Under the pieces are notes generated by a model. That model was not told where the DNA came from. It saw nothing but the letters and a program-made list of their open reading frames with translations, and made no database searches. Positions 25,800 to 33,799 of a stretch of 64,000 nt of DNA are shown piece after piece (positions within the stretch are counted from its first letter, which is position 1; the number at the start of each line of letters is the position of its first letter). Both the position numbers and the translations under genes were made by a program. Source of the DNA: Haplosporangium gracile (lineage: Eukaryota > Mortierellomycota > Mortierellomycetes > Mortierellales > Mortierellaceae); the NCBI GenBank assembly GCA_015499985.1, contig JAAAUF010000018.1:47359-111358 (forward strand), read 5' to 3'.

Positions 25800-27392
25800 A
25801 TGCACTCACGCCTGGCAATCTTTGAAATCCCTCATGTACTCAACCTAATCTGCATCCGCCTCACCACCAACGACCTCATCTCCTGCACCCAAGTCTCATC
25901 TCTCTGGCATGGCATCTTTCGATCACACCTCCTTCAACATATCCGATTCGTAGATTTGAAGAAAGAAACTACATGGGACATCCTCGATCATGCCAACAGG
26001 ATTAAGTTCCTTAAGATTGATATTGCTGATGGAGGCTGGTTCTTGACCGATAGCAGGCCAACAGCAACAGCGACTACAACAACAGCGAAAGAGACAACGC
26101 CGCCATATATCAATCTTAAAGAGCTCCACTGTGTCAATTTCGGATACTTTGAGGAACCGACAAGACCAACCGACGAGCGATATGGCGATTGGGTCTATCC
26201 GGATGCAACTCCTACTGTCGAGAAGAACAGAATCAAACCTCACGCCTCTTCGGGGGTCAATCATACAATCTCCAATATTGTGGCTCTCACTGGATACCTT
26301 TTGCGCCTACGAGAATCCCGACTGACAGGATACTACGCGGCTGTTAACGAGGAAGAACGACAACTGATCCCGATCTTCCTCCGGCAGTCATCTTCAACCC
26401 TGGAGGTCATTTCAATCGACTCCAGCAACAATTTATCCAATTTTGACACCGACCCCTTCACGACTGCAGCATGGAACTTTTGGAACAACTATCCTCGTCT
26501 CCGAGAATATGCATTCGTGCCCAAAAACTATTATCGGCACATTGCGTCCGACCACAACACTATCGACATCCCAGTCGAGTTGCTCTCACGACCGACAGTT
26601 ACCTGCCGGAAATTGCAGAAGATGAAGATCGGGATCACGGACTACAGCGGACATGAGGAATGCTATCGGTATTCGCGTGCCGCCCAGAGTCAGGGCAGCT
26701 ACGAGCATCAGGAACACTTTTTAGGGTCGGTTCGTCCATTGCTCCGGTGCCTCCGGTCTTGTAAACAGCTCCGTCAAGACAGCATCTTGATCGGGTGGGA
26801 TCTTTGCATGGCTATTTGCAGGTTGAGCTTGGATGAGGCGCTTCTTCGCATCAATAGACCGTCAACAACGACATCGGACATTCATTCTACAGGACTCTCT
26901 CACGACAATACCAGTAGCGTCAGCAGCAGCAGCAGCAGCAGCAATGGGACAGAGGCAACACCGCTACAACCGGAGGACCTGGAGATCACTAGGCAAGACT
27001 TGAAACGGTTAGGCCTCGATTGGCGTTGGCATTCTGGCGAGGAGAAGCAGCAGTGCGCAGAGACGCTTGCAAAGATGGAAATATCGCAGCGCGCCAAAGA
27101 TGACACTTATGACATAAATGCAGGGACAGCATGGGCACGCAGCTACAGACGCGTCGGTTGCAACTGGAAGGACTGGAGAAGTCTCGCAGGGCTTTATAGT
27201 TGTGCTCCCCCGAGATATAGCCTGAATGATGAGGAGCGTGTTCATGACTGCGACCATGTATACTGTTATAACGATGTACCCAATGGTCAGGATGTCGGTT
27301 TAGACAGGTTTTTGTCAGGCCATGATGTCAAAGTCGAACGGGGTCATCGTCGGCGGTCCTTACTCCGGCGTAGGAGAAAGCAAATAAAATAG
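25800..27392 (+). CDS. F-box-like protein with C-terminal basic tail
   Basis: This intronless 530-residue protein starts at ATG 25800. The frame is open upstream, but with no ATG and low-complexity leader sequence. The N-terminus (LAIFEIPHVLNLICIRLTTNDLISCTQVSSLWHGIFRSHLLQHI) has the shape of an F-box: a Leu/Ile-rich helix, the 'CTQVSSLWH' segment and a helix before LRR-like sequence. F-box proteins present substrates to SCF ubiquitin ligases through Skp1. The middle shows irregular Leu-rich segments (LKELHCVN, LRLRESRLTGY, LEVISIDSS). A Ser run, SSSSSSSSNG, sits at about 26916-26946. The tail is Arg/Lys-rich (GHRRRSLLRRRRKQIK). A decayed paralogue lies upstream, and a copy of the tail lies at 31905-32009. 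Confidence 0.75.
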   Translation: MHSRLAIFEIPHVLNLICIRLTTNDLISCTQVSSLWHGIFRSHLLQHIRFVDLKKETTWDILDHANRIKFLKIDIADGGWFLTDSRPTATATTTTAKETTPPYINLKELHCVNFGYFEEPTRPTDERYGDWVYPDATPTVEKNRIKPHASSGVNHTISNIVALTGYLLRLRESRLTGYYAAVNEEERQLIPIFLRQSSSTLEVISIDSSNNLSNFDTDPFTTAAWNFWNNYPRLREYAFVPKNYYRHIASDHNTIDIPVELLSRPTVTCRKLQKMKIGITDYSGHEECYRYSRAAQSQGSYEHQEHFLGSVRPLLRCLRSCKQLRQDSILIGWDLCMAICRLSLDEALLRINRPSTTTSDIHSTGLSHDNTSSVSSSSSSSNGTEATPLQPEDLEITRQDLKRLGLDWRWHSGEEKQQCAETLAKMEISQRAKDDTYDINAGTAWARSYRRVGCNWKDWRSLAGLYSCAPPRYSLNDEERVHDCDHVYCYNDVPNGQDVGLDRFLSGHDVKVERGHRRRSLLRRRRKQIK

Positions 27393-27968
27393 CGTTGGCG
27401 CCAAGCACTTTTTGTTTTTCTATATTTTCATTAATGTTCTGGCAAGTGTGTCTGTGTATTGCCTCTGATTGTTGTGTTGCTTTAAAAGTACCCGCGCCAT
27501 GCGTGTGTGTTCCTTGTCTTGTGAAGTGTTCATGCAAGGTGGTTGAATGCGCCCAGACGAGCGTCACTCAGGGAAATTGCTTATTTTTTGCTCTCCCTAA
27601 TTTGCGTCAGATATATCAAGGAGCACACACAAACACACGCGCAACCCATCTTTTTTAGGAAAGGACCTGTGAATGGCCTACATCGCACGCAGTTCATACT
27701 GTGGACGGATGGAGCAGCGGTCGGAGAATACTTGTCAAAAGCGCGGCGATATGAAAGAGTGCGAGGGAGTCCAATTGACATCACAGCGCTGTCAACTCTA
27801 AATCATTTTTGGTTGCTTGGCAATCACTCCCTCGACTTTACATGGATGGGACACTATATCAATTTTCTCTCTTGGCCCGCTTGGCGGCGTCTGACCTGAT
27901 GTGACTAAGGTTTACTTCTGCCAAGCTGACAAAACCTTACTCCCCTTCTCCCTCTCACTTTCTAAGCG

Positions 27969-27984
27969 TTGCGGAAATCCGCAA
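27969..27984. promoter_or_regulatory. Palindrome with CGG-N4-CCG before small-protein gene 1
   Basis: TTGCGGAAATCCGCAA consists of 7-bp arms around AA and contains CGG-AAAT-CCG, the spacing type bound by some dimeric Zn2Cys6 regulators. It lies 28 bases upstream of the TATA box and is repeated exactly in the duplicate promoter at 32564-32579. Confidence 0.45.
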
Positions 27985-28011
27985 TCATGAAGAGACAAAG
28001 GGACAGACGAG

Positions 28012-28019
28012 TATATAAA
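28012..28019 (+). promoter_or_regulatory. TATA box of small-protein gene 1
   Basis: TATATAAA lies 134 bases before the ATG. The stretch between holds no other ATG, as expected of an efficiently translated leader. Confidence 0.7.
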
Positions 28020-28152
28020 GCCATACTCAATTCCACTTTTCCCCTCATCACTCAAACACATCCACAAAACAACAAAAGCAACCTGCTTCAAGCATACTCA
28101 AGCAATCCCCAGCCCCTCTCGATAACTCAAGAAACACACTCTCAAGCCAAAC

Positions 28153-28341
28153 ATGTCTCTCTTCAAGCGCTCCAACAAGAACAAGACTGCCTCTGCTGCC
28201 TCCACCCCTGCTCAGACCCCCCGTGCCTCGATGCAGACCATCCGAGATGCCACCGGTACCAAGATGGCCCCTGAGGAGGCCCTCTACAAGATCTCGCACA
28301 ACATGATGTCCAACGCCTCAACCGGCCCCTTCATCCGCTAA
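28153..28341 (+). CDS. Small basic/TP-rich protein, family member 1 (62 aa)
   Basis: An intronless 62-codon gene starting MSLFKRSNKNK. The layout shared by the family is a basic N-terminus, a Ser/Thr/Ala stretch with STPAQTPRASMQ, a segment PEEALYKISHNMM that could form an amphipathic helix, and a short hydrophobic end closing with Arg (GPFIR). No signal peptide or membrane span is visible. The TP..TPR sites could be targets of proline-directed kinases. The gene has a TATA box, an ATG-free leader and AATAAA downstream, so it looks like a compact transcribed unit. The protein differs from member 4 at one residue (Ala instead of Thr after KM). I recognise no domain and no function. A longer frame overlapping the leader in another phase is a shadow. 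Confidence 0.8.
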   Translation: MSLFKRSNKNKTASAASTPAQTPRASMQTIRDATGTKMAPEEALYKISHNMMSNASTGPFIR

Positions 28342-28343
28342 GG

Positions 28344-28370
28344 GCCGATCCGCCTTACTTCTCGATCGGC
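28344..28370 (+). other. Hairpin just after the stop codon of gene 1
   Basis: GCCGATC (28344-28350) pairs with GATCGGC (28364-28370) around a 13-base pyrimidine-rich loop, beginning two bases after the TAA. The duplicate gene has a different stem in the same place. Confidence 0.5.
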
Positions 28371-28430
28371 ACATCAACAAGTTGACACCATCAATGCCCT
28401 TACTCTCTTGTAATAACAACTCTATTGTAC

Positions 28431-28436
28431 AATAAA
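28431..28436 (+). terminator. Polyadenylation signal of small-protein gene 1
   Basis: AATAAA lies 90 bases after the stop, directly behind TTGTAC. The same TTGTACAATAAA occurs in copy 2, and TTGTACAGCAATAAA in member 3. Confidence 0.7.
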
Positions 28437-28440
28437 TCGC

Positions 28441-29182
28441 CTTCATTTTCGTCATACAACAAGAAAAATTTTAACACGGAAAAAAAAGAAAAATTGGTAA
28501 AGTTCGAAGGCTTCTGTTTTTATCCCTCCCTCTTTTGAATGACACACACTTTCTCGCGTCCACATTTTTTCTTCTTGATTAGTCGCATTACTTATACATC
28601 CTCCATCCATACACGCCTTCTTCGTCGCTTCTGCCTTAGGCGACAAAAATGTCGGCGACAAAGAATCTAAACTAACGCTTACATTTTTTTTGCTCGGCGA
28701 CTACCATTTCCACAAGGAAGACACACCTCTCCATGGAATAATTGACTGGTCCTTTTGCGACGTCCGTTTCTTTCTAAACCAGATAACAATAAGTCTATTT
28801 TCTGACTTGTTGGCTCAGAGTCCCTCTTTCATGTGTGGGGGCCATGGTTGCCGCATTTGTTAACGATTGCGGCAGAACTCGTTTAAGCATAGGATAATGC
28901 ATAACCTTTTCTGTGCCTACCCAGAACCTATGCTCGTGGTCAGTAACAGCCCGTGCCTTGACCGAAGTCTTGGGGCATTGGAGCAAAAATTTGTTGCAAT
29001 CAGAAAATTCATCCGCAGTTTGCGCCCTAGCAAGTTGAGTCCCAACCCTCTCCACCAAATGAAATCCTTCTCTACTTTCTTTGATTGGCGATAGCCTTCT
29101 GTACTTTGTTTTTTTCGATTGATGGATGGTGATTACGCCTAGTTATCATTTACCATGCGGTCGAGAACCTAACTTGGAGATG
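28441..29182. other. Intergenic between small-protein genes 1 and 2
   Basis: AT-rich sequence. A minus-strand open frame of 87 codons (29058-28795) begins MVERVGTQLARAQTADEF and lacks any recognisable motif, promoter or start context. It may be a remnant or chance, and no gene is called. Confidence 0.4.
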
Positions 29183-29188
29183 TATAAA
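29183..29188 (+). promoter_or_regulatory. TATA box of small-protein gene 2
   Basis: TATAAA lies 176 bases before the ATG at 29365. The leader contains no ATG and ends in a CT-rich microsatellite. Confidence 0.65.
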
Positions 29189-29286
29189 GGTGCGAGAATA
29201 TCGAAAGAGAACACTAACTCGGCATCCAAAAAAAAACTTTGGCAACCAACTCACCAAACTGAAATTATCTCATTCTCTACTTGTCA

Positions 29287-29353
29287 CAGGACTCTGCCTC
29301 TCTCTCTCTCTCGCTCGCTCTTTTTCTCTTTCTCTTTCTCTTTCTCTCTCTCA
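29287..29353 (+). repeat. Pyrimidine microsatellite (CT)n / (TTTCTC)n in leader
   Basis: Runs of CTCTCTCTC, GCTCGCTC and TTTCTCTTTCTC lie immediately upstream of small-protein gene 2, probably transcribed as its 5' leader. Confidence 0.8.
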
Positions 29354-29364
29354 CACACAATACC

Positions 29365-29568
29365 ATGCTCCTTTTCAAGCGATTCAACAAGAACAAATCA
29401 GAGTCTGGCGCCTCCACTCCAAGCCAGACTCCATCACAAACCCCACGTACGTCGATCCAGGCTCTCCGCGATGCCGGTATCCAATCGAACCCCGACGCCG
29501 ACAAAGTTCTCCGTAAGGTCACAAGGGCCGCAATGACTAGCGCAGCCCTTCCTATGTCCGTCCGTTAA
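29365..29568 (+). CDS. Small basic/TP-rich protein, family member 2 (67 aa)
   Basis: The most divergent of the four clear paralogues. It starts MLLFKRFNKNKSESGASTP, has a tripled TP-type stretch (TPSQTPSQTPRTSIQALRDAG), a helical-looking segment (DADKVLRKVTRAAM) and ends SVR. The conserved skeleton with member 1 is LFKR-NKNK, AST, QTPR-S-Q and the terminal Arg. It is intronless. Its AATAAA is at 29642, and the TATA box is at 29183. Divergence outside that skeleton, with the skeleton kept, argues for selection on the protein. Function is unknown. Confidence 0.72.
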   Translation: MLLFKRFNKNKSESGASTPSQTPSQTPRTSIQALRDAGIQSNPDADKVLRKVTRAAMTSAALPMSVR

Positions 29569-29603
29569 AAATACACCCCCTCCGCGCCTGTCATCTCTTT
29601 CAC

Positions 29604-30176
29604 TCAGTACAGTGTTATTGTTTTTTTGTATGTTATTGGCAAATAAACTGTGAAAAAGAAGCTATTTGGGACATGTGAATTTATACGTTTTAGAAGTCTG
29701 ATCAACATCCCATCTCCTGGCCATTCCTTATCAGTTCCCGAAAATGCATACACGACCGTCACAGAGATACGCTTGGTTCCATCGGTATCAAAGGCGGCCC
29801 CGACCTCTGCATGTCCACAGGGCGCGGCACCCATGGCAGCGAAGGTCTTCCTCGTAATGGGACAGTTCTGACCAGTGGTCTCGGCCTTGGACAGGTCGAT
29901 ATCACAGGCAATCTCTGGCTTGAAACGGTTGTCCAGGGCTGTGGTGACGGTGACTAGCTTTAGCTTGTTGGTCGCGCACGCTGCTTTGAGGCTCTCACTA
30001 ATGCACTTGGACTCGATCCTGGGGTTGATGGAGATGTATCCGGGGTGGGAGATTGGGGGTGTGAAGACAAAGACCTCTGCCTTGATGTGTTGGCTCATGG
30101 TGGACAATATTGAGCGAAGACGATCATGATGAGGCAGGTTCAGCGGGTGTTCAGGTCGATTTGTGTTGCTTTCCAT
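29604..30176 (-). CDS. Hypothetical protein, no recognised domain
   Basis: An open frame of 190 codons starting at 30176. A second ATG at 30098 sits in a better context (GTCCACCATGA) and would give 164 residues (MSQHIKAEVFVFTPP), so the first 26 codons may be leader. The body has balanced, protein-like composition (ISINPRIESKCISES, KLVTVTTALDNRFKPEI, AAPCGHAEVGAAFD) with five Cys residues and no membrane span. The last 25 residues (NSFFFTVYLPITYKKTITLY region) overlap the 3' flank of the opposite-strand small-protein gene and are AT-rich, so the true end could be a missed splice site. Function is unknown. Confidence 0.5.
   Translation of the reverse strand: MESNTNRPEHPLNLPHHDRLRSILSTMSQHIKAEVFVFTPPISHPGYISINPRIESKCISESLKAACATNKLKLVTVTTALDNRFKPEIACDIDLSKAETTGQNCPITRKTFAAMGAAPCGHAEVGAAFDTDGTKRISVTVVYAFSGTDKEWPGDGMLIRLLKRINSHVPNSFFFTVYLPITYKKTITLY
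29642..29647 (+). terminator. Polyadenylation signal of small-protein gene 2
   Basis: AATAAA lies 73 bases after the stop. It lies inside or close to the 3' end of the convergent minus-strand gene at 29604, so the two transcripts would overlap. Confidence 0.55.
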
Positions 30177-31269
30177 TTATTGAATGTGCGTTTTACTCAC
30201 GTGAGATGTGCTTACTTGGAGAATTGGGTACGTTGAATGAGTGGGCGATGGAAAGCATAGCTTCTTTTTATCTTGTAGAGCGAATAGATGAATAAACCAG
30301 TGTACGTCAACACGCCTCTTCTTTCTCAGGCCTGTAAAGAGTGACACCATGTAACAGCACATTCATGTTTTTTTTTTATCCAATGGTGCGCATACCACAT
30401 AGGTCCTATCCCCGTCTTTTCATGCACCTTGTATTTTCCTTTCTGACAATAAAGTTATCATATTTACAGGTGAACATATCTTCTCCATGGACAGATCCAT
30501 CTTATTGGCGGTTCATTCTCCTTTCAATTATCAAAGACACTCCTTGGGTGTATTGTGTGTAGGACAACAAAGGGGAGCGGAAGACGGTAGTCGTTACATG
30601 TCCCTCGTTTTGTTTGCAAGAACCACTTCAGGGTCAACACCAAAAAATGCGCCAATGACTTTCTCAGGAGGCATTCCAATGTCCATTGCGTGGATAGGCC
30701 GTGCGCGGTCTTCCACACGCATAACTTGCACGCCTCCCCTCCTTTAAAGCCCTCATTCCCATTTTGATCCTTTTTTTCCTTGTATAGGGTTCCATCCTGT
30801 TACTTTTTCTTCTCGCTCCCACATTACCAGGAGGTAACTACAAAATCTATTAATGGTGCATTAGCATATATCATTCCTTTAAGAGTAAAAGAAAAGGACC
30901 ATGTTTGGTTGGCGGCTAGTCATTGCGAGCTCTCTCCCTTTTCTATTTTTCGTAGGCCGATTTTTATGTTTATATCTCTGACCTCGTAGGAGATGCCATT
31001 CTTTGTTGTCATGAAAGAAGTCCAGCTTTTCCAGTTTATTGACTCCGTACAATACTATTGATGACGGGACCTAACATGATGGCAGTTACTGCGGCGGACT
31101 AAAAAGTGGCAGTCGGCACTTGGGGCACTGATCTGTCTGAGATTCATTTGCGACATTTACGGTTCATCAGCGCCTGAGACCATTCTCAGATCAATTGTTC
31201 AATTGATAAATATCTCCGCCCGCAGTTGGGCTGACAAGCCGTAGTAACTTTCTTTTAGACGAAACAGCA
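30177..31269. other. Intergenic between hypothetical gene and small-protein gene 3
   Basis: No firm gene. On the minus strand, 30722-30594 encodes a 42-codon frame (MRVEDRARPIHAMD..., ending NKTRDM) with coherent, non-repetitive composition, below the usual gene-length cutoff. It has no visible promoter or relative in the window and is recorded only as a candidate. Confidence 0.35.
30196..30205. promoter_or_regulatory. CTCACGTGAG palindrome (E-box)
   Basis: A perfect 10-base palindrome with core CACGTG, the bHLH-type site, lies 20 bases upstream of the first ATG of the minus-strand gene 29604-30176. It could be a promoter element of that gene. Confidence 0.35.
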
Positions 31270-31277
31270 TATAAATA
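31270..31277 (+). promoter_or_regulatory. TATA box of small-protein gene 3
   Basis: TATAAATA lies 109 bases before the ATG at 31386. The leader after the expected start is ATG-free. Confidence 0.65.
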
Positions 31278-31385
31278 TGAGAGCCACTGCCCTTGCTTTC
31301 CCTACTATCACCAATCAATCAAACAACACTAATTCAAGACCATCAACAAGACACCTACGTACACTCATACACACACAAGCCAAAG

Positions 31386-31571
31386 ATGTCTCTCTTCAAG
31401 CGATCCAACAAGAACAAGTCCACCTCCGCTGCCTCTACTCCAGCTCAGACCCCTCGCGCATCCATGCAAAGCTCAAGATCCTCGAATATCAAGTTGACCC
31501 CAGAACAGGCCATCTACGAGATCGCTCACAACAAGCTGACGTTTGCCGCCGCCGGAGTGTGTGTCCGTTAA
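31386..31571 (+). CDS. Small basic/TP-rich protein, family member 3 (61 aa)
   Basis: It starts MSLFKRSNKNKSTSAASTP and keeps AQTPRASMQ. It then has SSRSSNIKLTPEQAIYEIAHNKL, where PEQAIYEIAHN aligns with PEEALYKISHN of members 1 and 4, and it ends VCVR. It is intronless, with a TATA box at 31270 and AATAAA at 31660. A 5-bp hairpin (31561-31565 with 31574-31578) spans the stop codon. Flanking DNA is not part of the 1.1-kb duplication, so this copy arose in an older event. No function can be assigned. Confidence 0.78.
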   Translation: MSLFKRSNKNKSTSAASTPAQTPRASMQSSRSSNIKLTPEQAIYEIAHNKLTFAAAGVCVR

Positions 31572-31659
31572 AAGACACGCATAGTAGAGACATCTTATCA
31601 CCCTCATTGTTCTCAGCCATATATACCCGGCATTGCATTTCATCCTCATCTTGTACAGC

Positions 31660-31665
31660 AATAAA
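31660..31665 (+). terminator. Polyadenylation signal of small-protein gene 3
   Basis: AATAAA lies 88 bases after the stop, behind TTGTACAGC. Confidence 0.6.
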
Positions 31666-31904
31666 CGCATCTAGATCATTATCGTTCACAGTATGTCTCC
31701 ATTTATGTTTATGTTCATTGTCGCTTCACACGCGCTGTCACAAAGGGAAAACAGGCAAAAATGAAAAAAATACTGAATTTCGATATTGCTCTTGTTTTTT
31801 GTGCCACTTGACACACTCTTCCCTCCCTTTGCCCTCCTGTTCCGCTTTAACCGAGCGTTCATTGGCAGTGACGATGTGCCCTGCCTCTATAAACTACTCT
31901 ATCT

Positions 31905-32009
31905 GCGGATGACATTTTGAACAGAGTCATGTCAGGTCATGATGTCAAAGTTGCACGAGGGCATCGTCGACGGTCATTGCTTCCTTACAGGATAAAACAA
32001 ATAAACTAG
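31905..32009 (+). pseudogene. Orphan 3' end of the F-box gene
   Basis: The frame reads MSGHDVKVARGHRRRSLLPY then RIKQIN and TAG at 32007, against LSGHDVKVERGHRRRSLLRR in the intact F-box gene ending at 27392. Nothing upstream resembles the rest of that gene, so this is a fragment carried by the segmental duplication. Its frame and stop survive, but it has no start of its own. Confidence 0.8.
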
Positions 32010-32563
32010 GGTGTGTGCCAAGGATTCTCATTCGTTCATGAATGTTCTGGCAAGTGTGTATATCGGTGTTACTCTGATTGTTTTGTTGCCCTAAAATGTA
32101 TCTGTGCCACGAGTGTATATTTTGCCTTATAGGGTAATCATGCAATGTGGATGCATCCAGACAAGAGTCACACAGAGCAATTGCTTCTTTTTTGTTTTTG
32201 TTGTTTACATTAATTTGCACCAAGGAATCAATATGTCAAGGAGCACACACATACACAAGCACAACACGTCTTTTTTAGGAAAGGATTGATAGATGATGCA
32301 TTTCATACTGCGGAATGGAGCAGCGTCGGAGAATACTTGTCAAAAGCTGCGGCGACATGGAACAAAATGTGTGTTTATGCGCTCAATTGACATCACTGCA
32401 ATGCCAACCTTAAATCTTTTTTATTTTTGTTGCTTGGCGATAACAGCACTTCCCTCGATTGTACATGGATGGGAGACACCCGCTCTTGCTTGGCGGCGTC
32501 TGATGCGACTAAGGTTTACTTCTGCCAAGCTGTACTCCCCTTCTCCCTCTCACTTTCTAAGCG

Positions 32564-32579
32564 TTGCGGAAATCCGCAA
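32564..32579. promoter_or_regulatory. Palindrome with CGG-N4-CCG before small-protein gene 4
   Basis: Identical to the element at 27969-27984, at the same distance from the TATA box. Confidence 0.45.
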
Positions 32580-32606
32580 TCATGAAGAGACAAAGGGACA
32601 GACGAG

Positions 32607-32614
32607 TATATAAA
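32607..32614 (+). promoter_or_regulatory. TATA box of small-protein gene 4
   Basis: TATATAAA at the same spacing as in copy 1. The leader is identical to copy 1. Confidence 0.7.
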
Positions 32615-32747
32615 GCCATACTCAATTCCACTTTTCCCCTCATCACTCAAACACATCCACAAAACAACAAAAGCAACCTGCTTCAAGCATACTCAAGCAA
32701 TCCCCAGCCCCTCTCGATAACTCAAGAAACACACTCTCAAGCCAAAC

Positions 32748-32936
32748 ATGTCTCTCTTCAAGCGCTCCAACAAGAACAAGACTGCCTCTGCTGCCTCCAC
32801 CCCTGCTCAGACCCCTCGTGCCTCGATGCAGACCATCCGAGATGCCACCGGTACCAAGATGACCCCTGAGGAGGCCCTCTACAAGATCTCGCACAACATG
32901 ATGTCCAACGCCTCAACCGGCCCCTTCATCCGCTAA
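32748..32936 (+). CDS. Small basic/TP-rich protein, family member 4 (62 aa)
   Basis: It encodes the same 62-residue protein as member 1 except for one Ala-to-Thr change (KMTPEEALY), plus one silent change in the TPR codons. The Thr variant matches the LTPEQ of member 3, so it is probably ancestral. Promoter and leader are identical to copy 1, while the 3' UTR has diverged. This pattern suggests recent duplication or gene conversion limited to the promoter and coding part. AATAAA lies at 33027. Function is unknown. Confidence 0.8.
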   Translation: MSLFKRSNKNKTASAASTPAQTPRASMQTIRDATGTKMTPEEALYKISHNMMSNASTGPFIR

Positions 32937-33026: not shown

Positions 33027-33032
33027 AATAAA
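33027..33032 (+). terminator. Polyadenylation signal of small-protein gene 4
   Basis: AATAAA directly follows TTGTAC, as in copy 1. A 13-base A run follows at about 33046-33058. Confidence 0.65.
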
Positions 33033-33202: not shown

Positions 33203-33799
33203 CTATGGAATACCATGATAGTGCTTGAAACAATTTCGGTGTGCAAAAAGACAAAAGGGCACTTTGCAGTAGGTACAGCTCCAGGGGGTTGGAGTCTTGA
33301 CTTTGAAGTTCTCGTCCTTCAACTTGGTGGTCTTGTAGCGACAAAGGATACAGCTTGGGCGACTCTGGCCCGTCTGCTCCGCGTGTGGGTAGTACATACT
33401 CTTGTGGAGGAGTCGAATGGCGGGCAGCTCAGGCATGTTAATGGGTAACATACTCAATGCTGTTGGACGCTTCATAATCATCTTGCTTCTGGTGATGCTA
33501 ACGAGTCGTCTTGGGGTTCTGGGAGTAGTTTATGTTGTCTTCGAACGCCAGAGTCCAGGTCAATTCAATACGAAATCTCGGTGAGAGAGGGTACCTCCTT
33601 GTGCTTTGTAGATCCTGTATGCGTTGACAACGGTGGTATCCAAAATCCAGAAAAAGAGTGACATCCAAGTCCTGAAAACAGTCAACTGGGTGTTGTAGTA
33701 TGATCTGTATTGGTCGCTCAAGTCGACCCCGTTTATCTTGTACATGGGTTGTGGCGCCGGGCGTCTTGCACCGAGTCTCCAGCTGTCCACCGCACTCAT
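33203..33799 (-). pseudogene. piggyBac-type transposase remnant (C-terminal part)
   Basis: On the minus strand, 33799-33560 reads YKINGVDLSDQYRSYYNTQ, then FRTWMSLFFWILDTTVVNAY and RIYKAQGG. This is the piggyBac (DDE_Tnp_1_7) signature GVDxSDQxxxYY followed by the FW.LD...VNAY helix. The frame breaks near 33571-33575, where one base appears missing after SHRDF, and continues as RIELTWTLAFEDN in another frame. A second break near 33498 leads to 33481-33203, which ends with a Cys-rich zinc-binding tail (CILC, then CTYC, then FCLFAHRNCFKHYH), typical of piggyBac C-termini. With two frameshifts and no visible N-terminal catalytic region the element is dead. Faint continuation toward 34300 is not supported. 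Confidence 0.78.

What the first reader, a model, noticed from the sequence alone, without database searches (positions are those of the whole stretch)
28153..32936. Cluster of four paralogous genes for 61-67-residue basic, TP-rich proteins of unknown function
Seen in sequence: four genes at 28153, 29365, 31386 and 32748 encode proteins sharing M-LFKR-NKNK, an AST...QTPR-S-Q core, a helical-looking segment and a terminal Arg. Each has its own TATA box, ATG-free leader and AATAAA. Member 2 has diverged widely but keeps the skeleton, suggesting purifying selection on the protein. No signal peptide, membrane span or known domain is visible. Inference: a lineage-specific small-protein family, perhaps regulated by proline-directed phosphorylation at the TP sites and membrane- or protein-associated through the C-terminal helix.
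Basis: partly seen in the sequence, partly recalled or inferred. Interest (0 to 1): 0.8.

Follow-up and report, generated by a model that had tools for sequence, protein, structure and literature searches.

The report
Fungal small proteins with four-residue ladder
A cluster of four tiny genes in a soil fungus belongs to a large protein family with no domain entry, found here only in one family of fungi, whose core carries serines and threonines exactly four residues apart, a spacing that looks like a multi-step phosphorylation switch.

Summary
Four ORFs (62, 67, 61, 62 aa) lie at the stated places in a contig of Haplosporangium gracile (Mortierellaceae), each with TATA box, ATG-free leader and AATAAA. 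They are real genes: 10 of 11 family members found in this genome have that promoter layout, against 11 of 2147 ATGs in the window.

The family reaches far beyond the window and matches no Pfam model. Every listed relative that bears a name is from Mortierellaceae; 193 of 313 rows were not shown.

New here: S14, T18, T22 and S26 are nearly invariant and four apart, and all 25 distinct cores of non-standard length, of 98, differ by multiples of four. The block is under protein-level selection. Best reading: a disordered, basic protein with a multisite phosphorylation ladder, perhaps of GSK3 type primed at R-x-S26, plus a short, variable C-terminal helix. No phosphorylation or expression was observed; T/S12 is conserved off the ladder, and slippage could explain part of the length pattern.

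Members 1 and 4 are near-identical over a 404-nt tract (probable gene conversion). Many two-unit database relatives look like fused gene models.

The parts
28153..28341 (+). Member 1, 62 aa, single ORF
   Evidence: codon adaptation 0.69, above all 5000 background windows
29365..29568 (+). Member 2, 67 aa, diverged; ladder with one extra four-residue unit
   Evidence: unit-level relatives in P0002, P0003, P0036, P0049
31386..31571 (+). Member 3, 61 aa
   Evidence: unit-level relatives in P0028, P0031, P0032
32748..32936 (+). Member 4, 62 aa, 98% identical to member 1
28012..28017 (+). TATA motif of member 1
29183..29188 (+). TATA motif of member 2
31270..31275 (+). TATA motif of member 3
32607..32612 (+). 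TATA motif of member 4
28431..28436 (+). AATAAA of member 1
29642..29647 (+). AATAAA of member 2
31660..31665 (+). AATAAA of member 3
33027..33032 (+). AATAAA of member 4
28192..28230 (+). Ladder codons S14-T18-T22-S26 of member 1
29404..29454 (+). Ladder codons S14-T18-T22-T26-S30 of member 2 (five rungs)
31425..31463 (+). Ladder codons S14-T18-T22-S26 of member 3
32787..32825 (+). Ladder codons S14-T18-T22-S26 of member 4
27938..28341 (+). Homogenised tract, copy at member 1 (TATA, leader, coding sequence)
   Evidence: 2 mismatches in 404 nt against 32533-32936; blocks before it 0.46-0.82 and after it 0.40-0.66 identical
32533..32936 (+). Homogenised tract, copy at member 4

Best explanation
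Small intracellular, mostly disordered, basic proteins built round a multisite phosphorylation switch. Shown by sequence: a basic N-terminal arm (M-x-x-F-K ... N-K-N-K-T/S), then S14-x3-T18-P-x2-T22-P-R-x-S26 with S/T at every fourth residue, a nearly invariant Arg31, and a variable tail with one predicted short helix. Inferred: a basophilic kinase phosphorylates S26 (R-x-S-hydrophobic); this primes a GSK3-type kinase, which steps N-terminally through T22, T18 and S14 (more rungs in some paralogues); T18-P and T22-P are also open to CDK or MAPK. Several phosphates beside an arm of charge +2.7 to +5.5 would release it from an acidic partner (membrane, nucleic acid or protein) or make a phospho-docking site, and the variable tail would give each paralogue its own partner. 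Multisite phospho-switch of any kind: about 0.5; GSK3 as the stepping kinase: about 0.3.
For: Profile count over 158 unique units (at least three of them spurious fragments): S14 153/153, T/S18 150/155, T/S22 152/156, S26 154/156, P19 155/155, P23 154/157, R24 149/156, R31 150/156. Anchored count over 98 distinct cores: lengths 11, 15, 19, 23 in 1, 73, 21, 3; rungs S/T in 95-98 of 97-98, extra rungs 24/24 and 3/3 (S at the last rung is required by the pattern used, and the rung before it was limited to S, T, V or A). Inserts in the core region are 4 or 8 residues in 16 of 17, while the linker after R31 takes 1, 2, 3, 4, 6 in 15, 9, 6, 1, 1 units. Ladder block pN/pS 0.20, pN below pS in 54 of 54 pairs (pairs not independent, pair 1-4 left out). 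Net charge +2.7 to +5.5 in residues 1-31 of 7 proteins. Coil apart from one helix in both models. Published precedent: GSK3 substrates often carry three or four adjacent S/T-x-x-x-pS/T motifs phosphorylated at every fourth residue (PMC9284383, passages).
Against: No phosphorylation, expression or kinase data. T/S12 is S/T in 150/152 units although off the ladder, and S17 in 91%, so the region is S/T-rich in general; S14 could be kept as part of a KNK-T-x-S motif. Three of 98 distinct cores break a rung (P0046 second unit, P0049, P0050). TPxQ-type length changes could come from slippage of a 12-nt repeat. S26 has only R at -2, a weak priming consensus. Whether this genome encodes GSK3 was not tested here.
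Confidence: 0.45

Rival explanations
1. The core is a conserved docking motif (TPxxTPRxS bound by one domain), kept for binding rather than for stepwise phosphorylation; the four-residue length changes come from replication slippage of a 12-nt TPxQ repeat.
For: Most four-residue inserts are TPxQ copies; Arg24 and Arg31 are as conserved as the rungs; T/S12 is conserved off the ladder.
Against: Ser-rich inserts in M. alpina paralogues and in L. elongata P0121, and the four-residue deletion in P0043, are not TPxQ copies yet keep the register. The two TPSQ units of member 2 differ at the DNA level, including an AGC/TCA serine pair, so they are not a fresh slippage copy. S/T is kept at the rungs while neighbours vary.
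Confidence: 0.25
2. Only the T-P sites matter: a CDK or MAPK substrate tail; S14 and S26 are kept for other reasons.
For: P19 155/155 and P23 154/157. The heptapeptide TPAQTPR lies in the MCM4 peptide used as antigen in PMC2848000, a paper that describes CDK-linked MCM4 phosphorylation (passages); the paper does not say in the passages seen that these residues are the CDK sites.
Against: S14 153/153 and S26 154/156 are kept as well, and extra rungs include Ser without following Pro (SSVA and SSAA inserts).
Confidence: 0.15
3. Tandem S/T-P-x-x turns with basic arms bind DNA or RNA (the SPXX/TPXX idea, recalled), so the repeat unit is structural.
For: pI 10.0-11.4 in 7 of 7 proteins; TPxx units repeat.
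Against: Rungs S14 and S26 lack the proline in most units, and only one Arg lies inside the core.
Confidence: 0.1
4. Chance or decayed ORFs.
For: Short; no Pfam match above cut-off.
Against: Relatives in ten Mortierellaceae genera, e.g. P0028 of Linnemannia hyalina at E 9.6e-58; purifying selection; promoter layout.
Confidence: 0.01

Closest known systems
GSK3 multisite substrates such as TRARG1
   Same: S/T at every fourth residue with a candidate priming site at the C-terminal end (precedent PMC9284383, passages)
   Different: TRARG1 phosphorylation was shown by experiment, here it is inferred; no sequence relation was found or looked for beyond Pfam and PDB scans
MCM4 N-terminal tail (TPAQTPR)
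   Same: Identical heptapeptide (PMC2848000, passages)
   Different: Large replication helicase subunit; only the heptapeptide is shared, found by a text search
Pfam P33MONOX (PF15302)
   Same: Residues 9-43 of member 3 match weakly
   Different: 13.9 bits against a cut-off of 27, E 0.051, and only 1 of the 4 members; not a relative

Membership tests
Mortierellaceae ladder small-protein family (named here) | M-x-x-F-K, KNK/KNQ arm and S-x3-T-P-x2-T-P-R-x-S core in a 59-74 aa protein | tested here: met
   All four window members; 11 of 11 own-genome members carry a core, one of them cut by a contig end
GSK3 ladder substrates | S/T at every fourth residue over at least three positions | tested here: met
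GSK3 ladder substrates | Phosphorylated priming residue at the C-terminal end | not testable with these tools
   S26 in R-x-S context is only a candidate
GSK3 ladder substrates | Phosphorylation by GSK3 | not testable with these tools
P33MONOX (PF15302) | Score above the curated cut-off | tested here: not met
   13.9 bits against 27
Any Pfam family | Match above cut-off | tested here: not met
   Four members scanned; no match over cut-off
Secreted effector | N-terminal signal peptide | not tested
   No predictor at hand; by eye the N terminus MSLFKRSNKNK has no hydrophobic run
Protein with solved relative | PDB sequence relative | tested here: not met
   Two chance-level matches, best E 0.23

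The most novel reading that the evidence does not exclude
The family is a natural series of phosphorylation counters: across Mortierellaceae, paralogues carry three to six rungs, gained or lost in whole four-residue steps (four and five within H. gracile), read out stepwise by GSK3 after priming at R-x-S. Rung number would set the threshold or delay of a switch, the variable tail would choose the target, and gene conversion would keep the most expressed pair identical.
Probability: 0.15. Interest if true: 0.75.

Novelty: new variant of a known kind. Interest (0 to 1): 0.5.

Why it matters
Mortierellaceae are widespread soil fungi and include oil producers (general knowledge). They carry a multicopy family of tiny proteins with no Pfam model for which the text searches made here found no description. 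If the ladder is phosphorylated, paralogues with three to six rungs are a ready-made set for testing how rung number shapes multisite signalling. The family also warns about annotation of tandem tiny genes: 26 of 171 database relatives hold two units, and 21 of those 26 keep two M..FK starts, as expected if neighbouring genes were joined by false introns; members 3 and 4 of this window are joined that way in P0027.

Tried and rejected
Chance or decayed ORFs: rejected. P33MONOX: rejected. Relatives in IMG/VR: 123 stretches matched a pattern, none confirmed by tblastn. Shared promoter elements: the best 8-mer is in 4 of 10 upstream regions (member 4 left out), no more than in 200 random sets, whose maxima were 3-6; stress-element counts are uneven. 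Amphipathic membrane helix: 3 of 7 proteins beat shuffles at 5%, with the best 14-mer picked first. Whole-gene dN/dS between distant paralogues is no clean argument: 0.11 to 1.32 over the 53 of 55 pairs with a defined dS, three pairs above 1, all with the C197a gene; tails align poorly and codon bias may lower dS. Codon reference: the EF1A frame could not be placed, so only four histone ORFs were used, one with a probably wrong upstream start. Literature: (listings seen) found no description of the family; one search found the heptapeptide only in the MCM4 paper; (listing) showed no Mortierella phosphoproteome by title; PMC7328260 (passages) says nothing of it in what I saw.

The same questions were then asked in accepted form.
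Full report
What is there. The window is part of a 111358-nt contig of Haplosporangium gracile (Mortierellaceae, Mortierellomycota): database protein P0001 from a contig of that length is 100% identical over member 1, the genome handle gives contig C274 (length), and the taxonomy is. Each has a TATA motif 116-182 nt upstream, no ATG between it (+25) and the start, and AATAAA 73-90 nt after the stop.

Are they genes? Six protein queries against the held genome found 11 family members: four in the window, four on contig C338 (one cut by the contig end), one on C182, two on C197 in divergent orientation (CDS list). A twelfth protein named from this species, P0138, was not found there; its best match was 52% identical. 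Ten of the 11 have TATAWA 116-212 nt upstream and an ATG-free leader. Of 2147 ATGs in the window, both strands, 11 have it, which must include the four members, since the criterion was set from the family; of 13 larger ORFs one has it. AATAAA follows within 250 nt in 9 of the 10 members whose 3' side is held.

Family and range. A single-sequence search gave 26 hits. A profile of 21 sequences gave 313 at E<=10, of which 120 were listed, down to E 8.3e-19. A profile of eight members of a second type (MxFFKK, the C197a type) gave 64, all listed. Every listed row that carries an organism name is from Mortierella, Linnemannia, Podila, Entomortierella, Actinomortierella, Lobosporangium, Dissophora, Gamsiella, Lunasporangiospora or Haplosporangium, all placed in Mortierellaceae. 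The 193 unlisted rows and the rows without a name leave the restriction likely, not proved. No Pfam model matches above cut-off; PDB sequences and IMG/VR gave no relative.

The ladder. In 158 unique profile-aligned units (at least three are spurious fragments such as P0044/75-90, P0053/17-51 and P0115/1-15) the core is S14 153/153, T/S18 150/155, P19 155/155, T/S22 152/156, P23 154/157, R24 149/156, S26 154/156; R31 is 150/156, and the N-terminal M1, F4, K5, K9 are equally strict. The four acceptors are exactly four apart. A second count anchored on P-R-x-S used 171 database proteins and the 11 own genes; 170 of the 171 gave a core, the exception being the C-terminal fragment P0171. Dropped: two zero-length artefacts, and pattern matches without the KNK-type anchor, which include the second units of P0002 and P0003. 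That left 207 units and 98 distinct cores of length 11, 15, 19 and 23 (1, 73, 21 and 3), so all 25 non-standard cores differ by multiples of four. Rungs are S/T in 98/98 (required by the pattern), 97/98 (limited by the pattern to S, T, V, A), 95/98 and 96/97; extra rungs in 24/24 and 3/3. Off-rung positions range from 0/98 to 56/98, with one real exception, the residue after KNK (T/S12: 150/152; 74/97, 23/24 and 3/3 at the matching offsets). Three distinct cores break a rung (P0046 second unit, P0049, P0050). In the profile alignment 16 of 17 inserts in columns 9-26 are 4 or 8 long, while the linker after R31 takes inserts of 1, 2, 3, 4 and 6 in 15, 9, 6, 1 and 1 units.

Slippage or selection? 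Most four-residue inserts are TPxQ copies and could be slippage of a 12-nt unit. The Ser-rich inserts in M. alpina paralogues and in L. elongata P0121 and the four-residue deletion in P0043 are not, and keep the register. The two TPSQ units of member 2 differ in DNA, with AGC in one and TCA in the other. I judge by eye at least seven separate length changes; no tree was built.

Selection. Nei-Gojobori dN/dS among window members is 0.28 (1-2), 0.23 (1-3), 0.17 (2-3), 0.27 (2-4), 0.24 (3-4) and 0.31 (1-4, only two differences), with dS about 1 or more in all but the 1-4 pair. Fisher tests give p = 1.6e-4 (1-2), 7.6e-6 (1-3) and 4.9e-6 (2-3). Other pairs run from 0.11 to 1.32; the three above 1 all involve C197a. 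In the ladder block pN/pS is 0.20 and pN is below pS in 54 of 54 pairs, the 1-4 pair left out and pairs with member 2 limited to nine codons; members 1 and 3 differ by 8 synonymous and 0 nonsynonymous changes there. Own paralogues average 66% identity up to Arg31 and 23% after it (ten members, the cut one and the 1-4 pair left out).

Gene conversion. Members 1 and 4 differ at 2 of 404 positions over 27938-28341 (32533-32936); 50-column blocks before it are 0.46-0.82 identical and after it 0.40-0.66. An older duplication of about 1 kb was thus probably homogenised recently across TATA, leader and coding sequence, so the identical leaders are no evidence for function. In one L. elongata genome the 1-like and 4-like units likewise share S13 and T25, where both H. 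gracile copies have Ala (P0002; P0031): a hint of repeated homogenisation, from proteins only.

Cluster age. Database proteins that fuse 3-like with 4-like units (P0028, P0031, P0032) and 1-like with 2-like units (P0002, P0003, P0036, P0049) in Linnemannia and M. hygrophila suggest that this gene order is older than these species. This assumes that the fusions are gene-model errors over neighbours, as P0027 is for members 3 and 4 here.

Expression hints. Codon adaptation to four histone ORFs is 0.69 and 0.67 for members 1 and 4, above all 5000 background windows from 15 window ORFs (maximum 0.631), but 0.32 and 0.40 for members 2 and 3, which is ordinary. No transcript or peptide data were available.

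Structure. AlphaFold predicts coil apart from one helix, 40-51 from the single sequence (mean pLDDT 68) and 40-50 from a 35-sequence alignment (64). Low confidence that does not rise with an alignment fits disorder but does not prove it.

How it may work. Shown: register, basic arm, purifying selection. Inferred: phosphorylation itself, priming at S26, GSK3 as the stepping kinase, charge reversal, partner choice by the tail. The precedent for stepping by four residues is TRARG1 (PMC9284383, passages). The heptapeptide TPAQTPR in MCM4 (PMC2848000, passages) shows only that the sequence occurs in a CDK-linked protein.

Verdict. A real, apparently undescribed family of tiny proteins across Mortierellaceae. 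The four-residue register is the most informative new fact, and phosphoproteomics would test it directly.

Noticed in passing
window 33563-33799 (-): Short ORF resembling the end of a piggyBac-type transposase (Pfam DDE_Tnp_1_7, E 0.011, 15.5 bits, below the cut-off of 22.4); the piggyBac label is recalled.
   Followed up: partly
window 25800-27392 (+): 530-aa ORF next to the cluster with a sub-cut-off F-box-like match (E 0.0018, 18.5 bits against 24.3).
   Followed up: partly
window 29604-30176 (-): 190-aa ORF between members 2 and 3 with no Pfam match up to E 10.
   Followed up: partly
P0138 (BGZ47_002264), contig of 6726 nt: A further H. gracile family member in the protein database that the held assembly did not yield; the C197a protein is listed on a contig of 62983 nt while C197 here has 59618, so the two assemblies may differ.
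   Followed up: partly
L010 (contig C197): Divergent pair of family genes of two types (C197a and C197b); several other Mortierellaceae have two-unit database proteins joining similar types (P0044, P0045, P0048, P0051, P0056), so this may be an old locus.
   Followed up: no
window 27987-28153: The database model P0001 begins with residues encoded from the ATG at 27987, upstream of the TATA motif at 28012, so its start and leader intron look wrong.
   Followed up: partly
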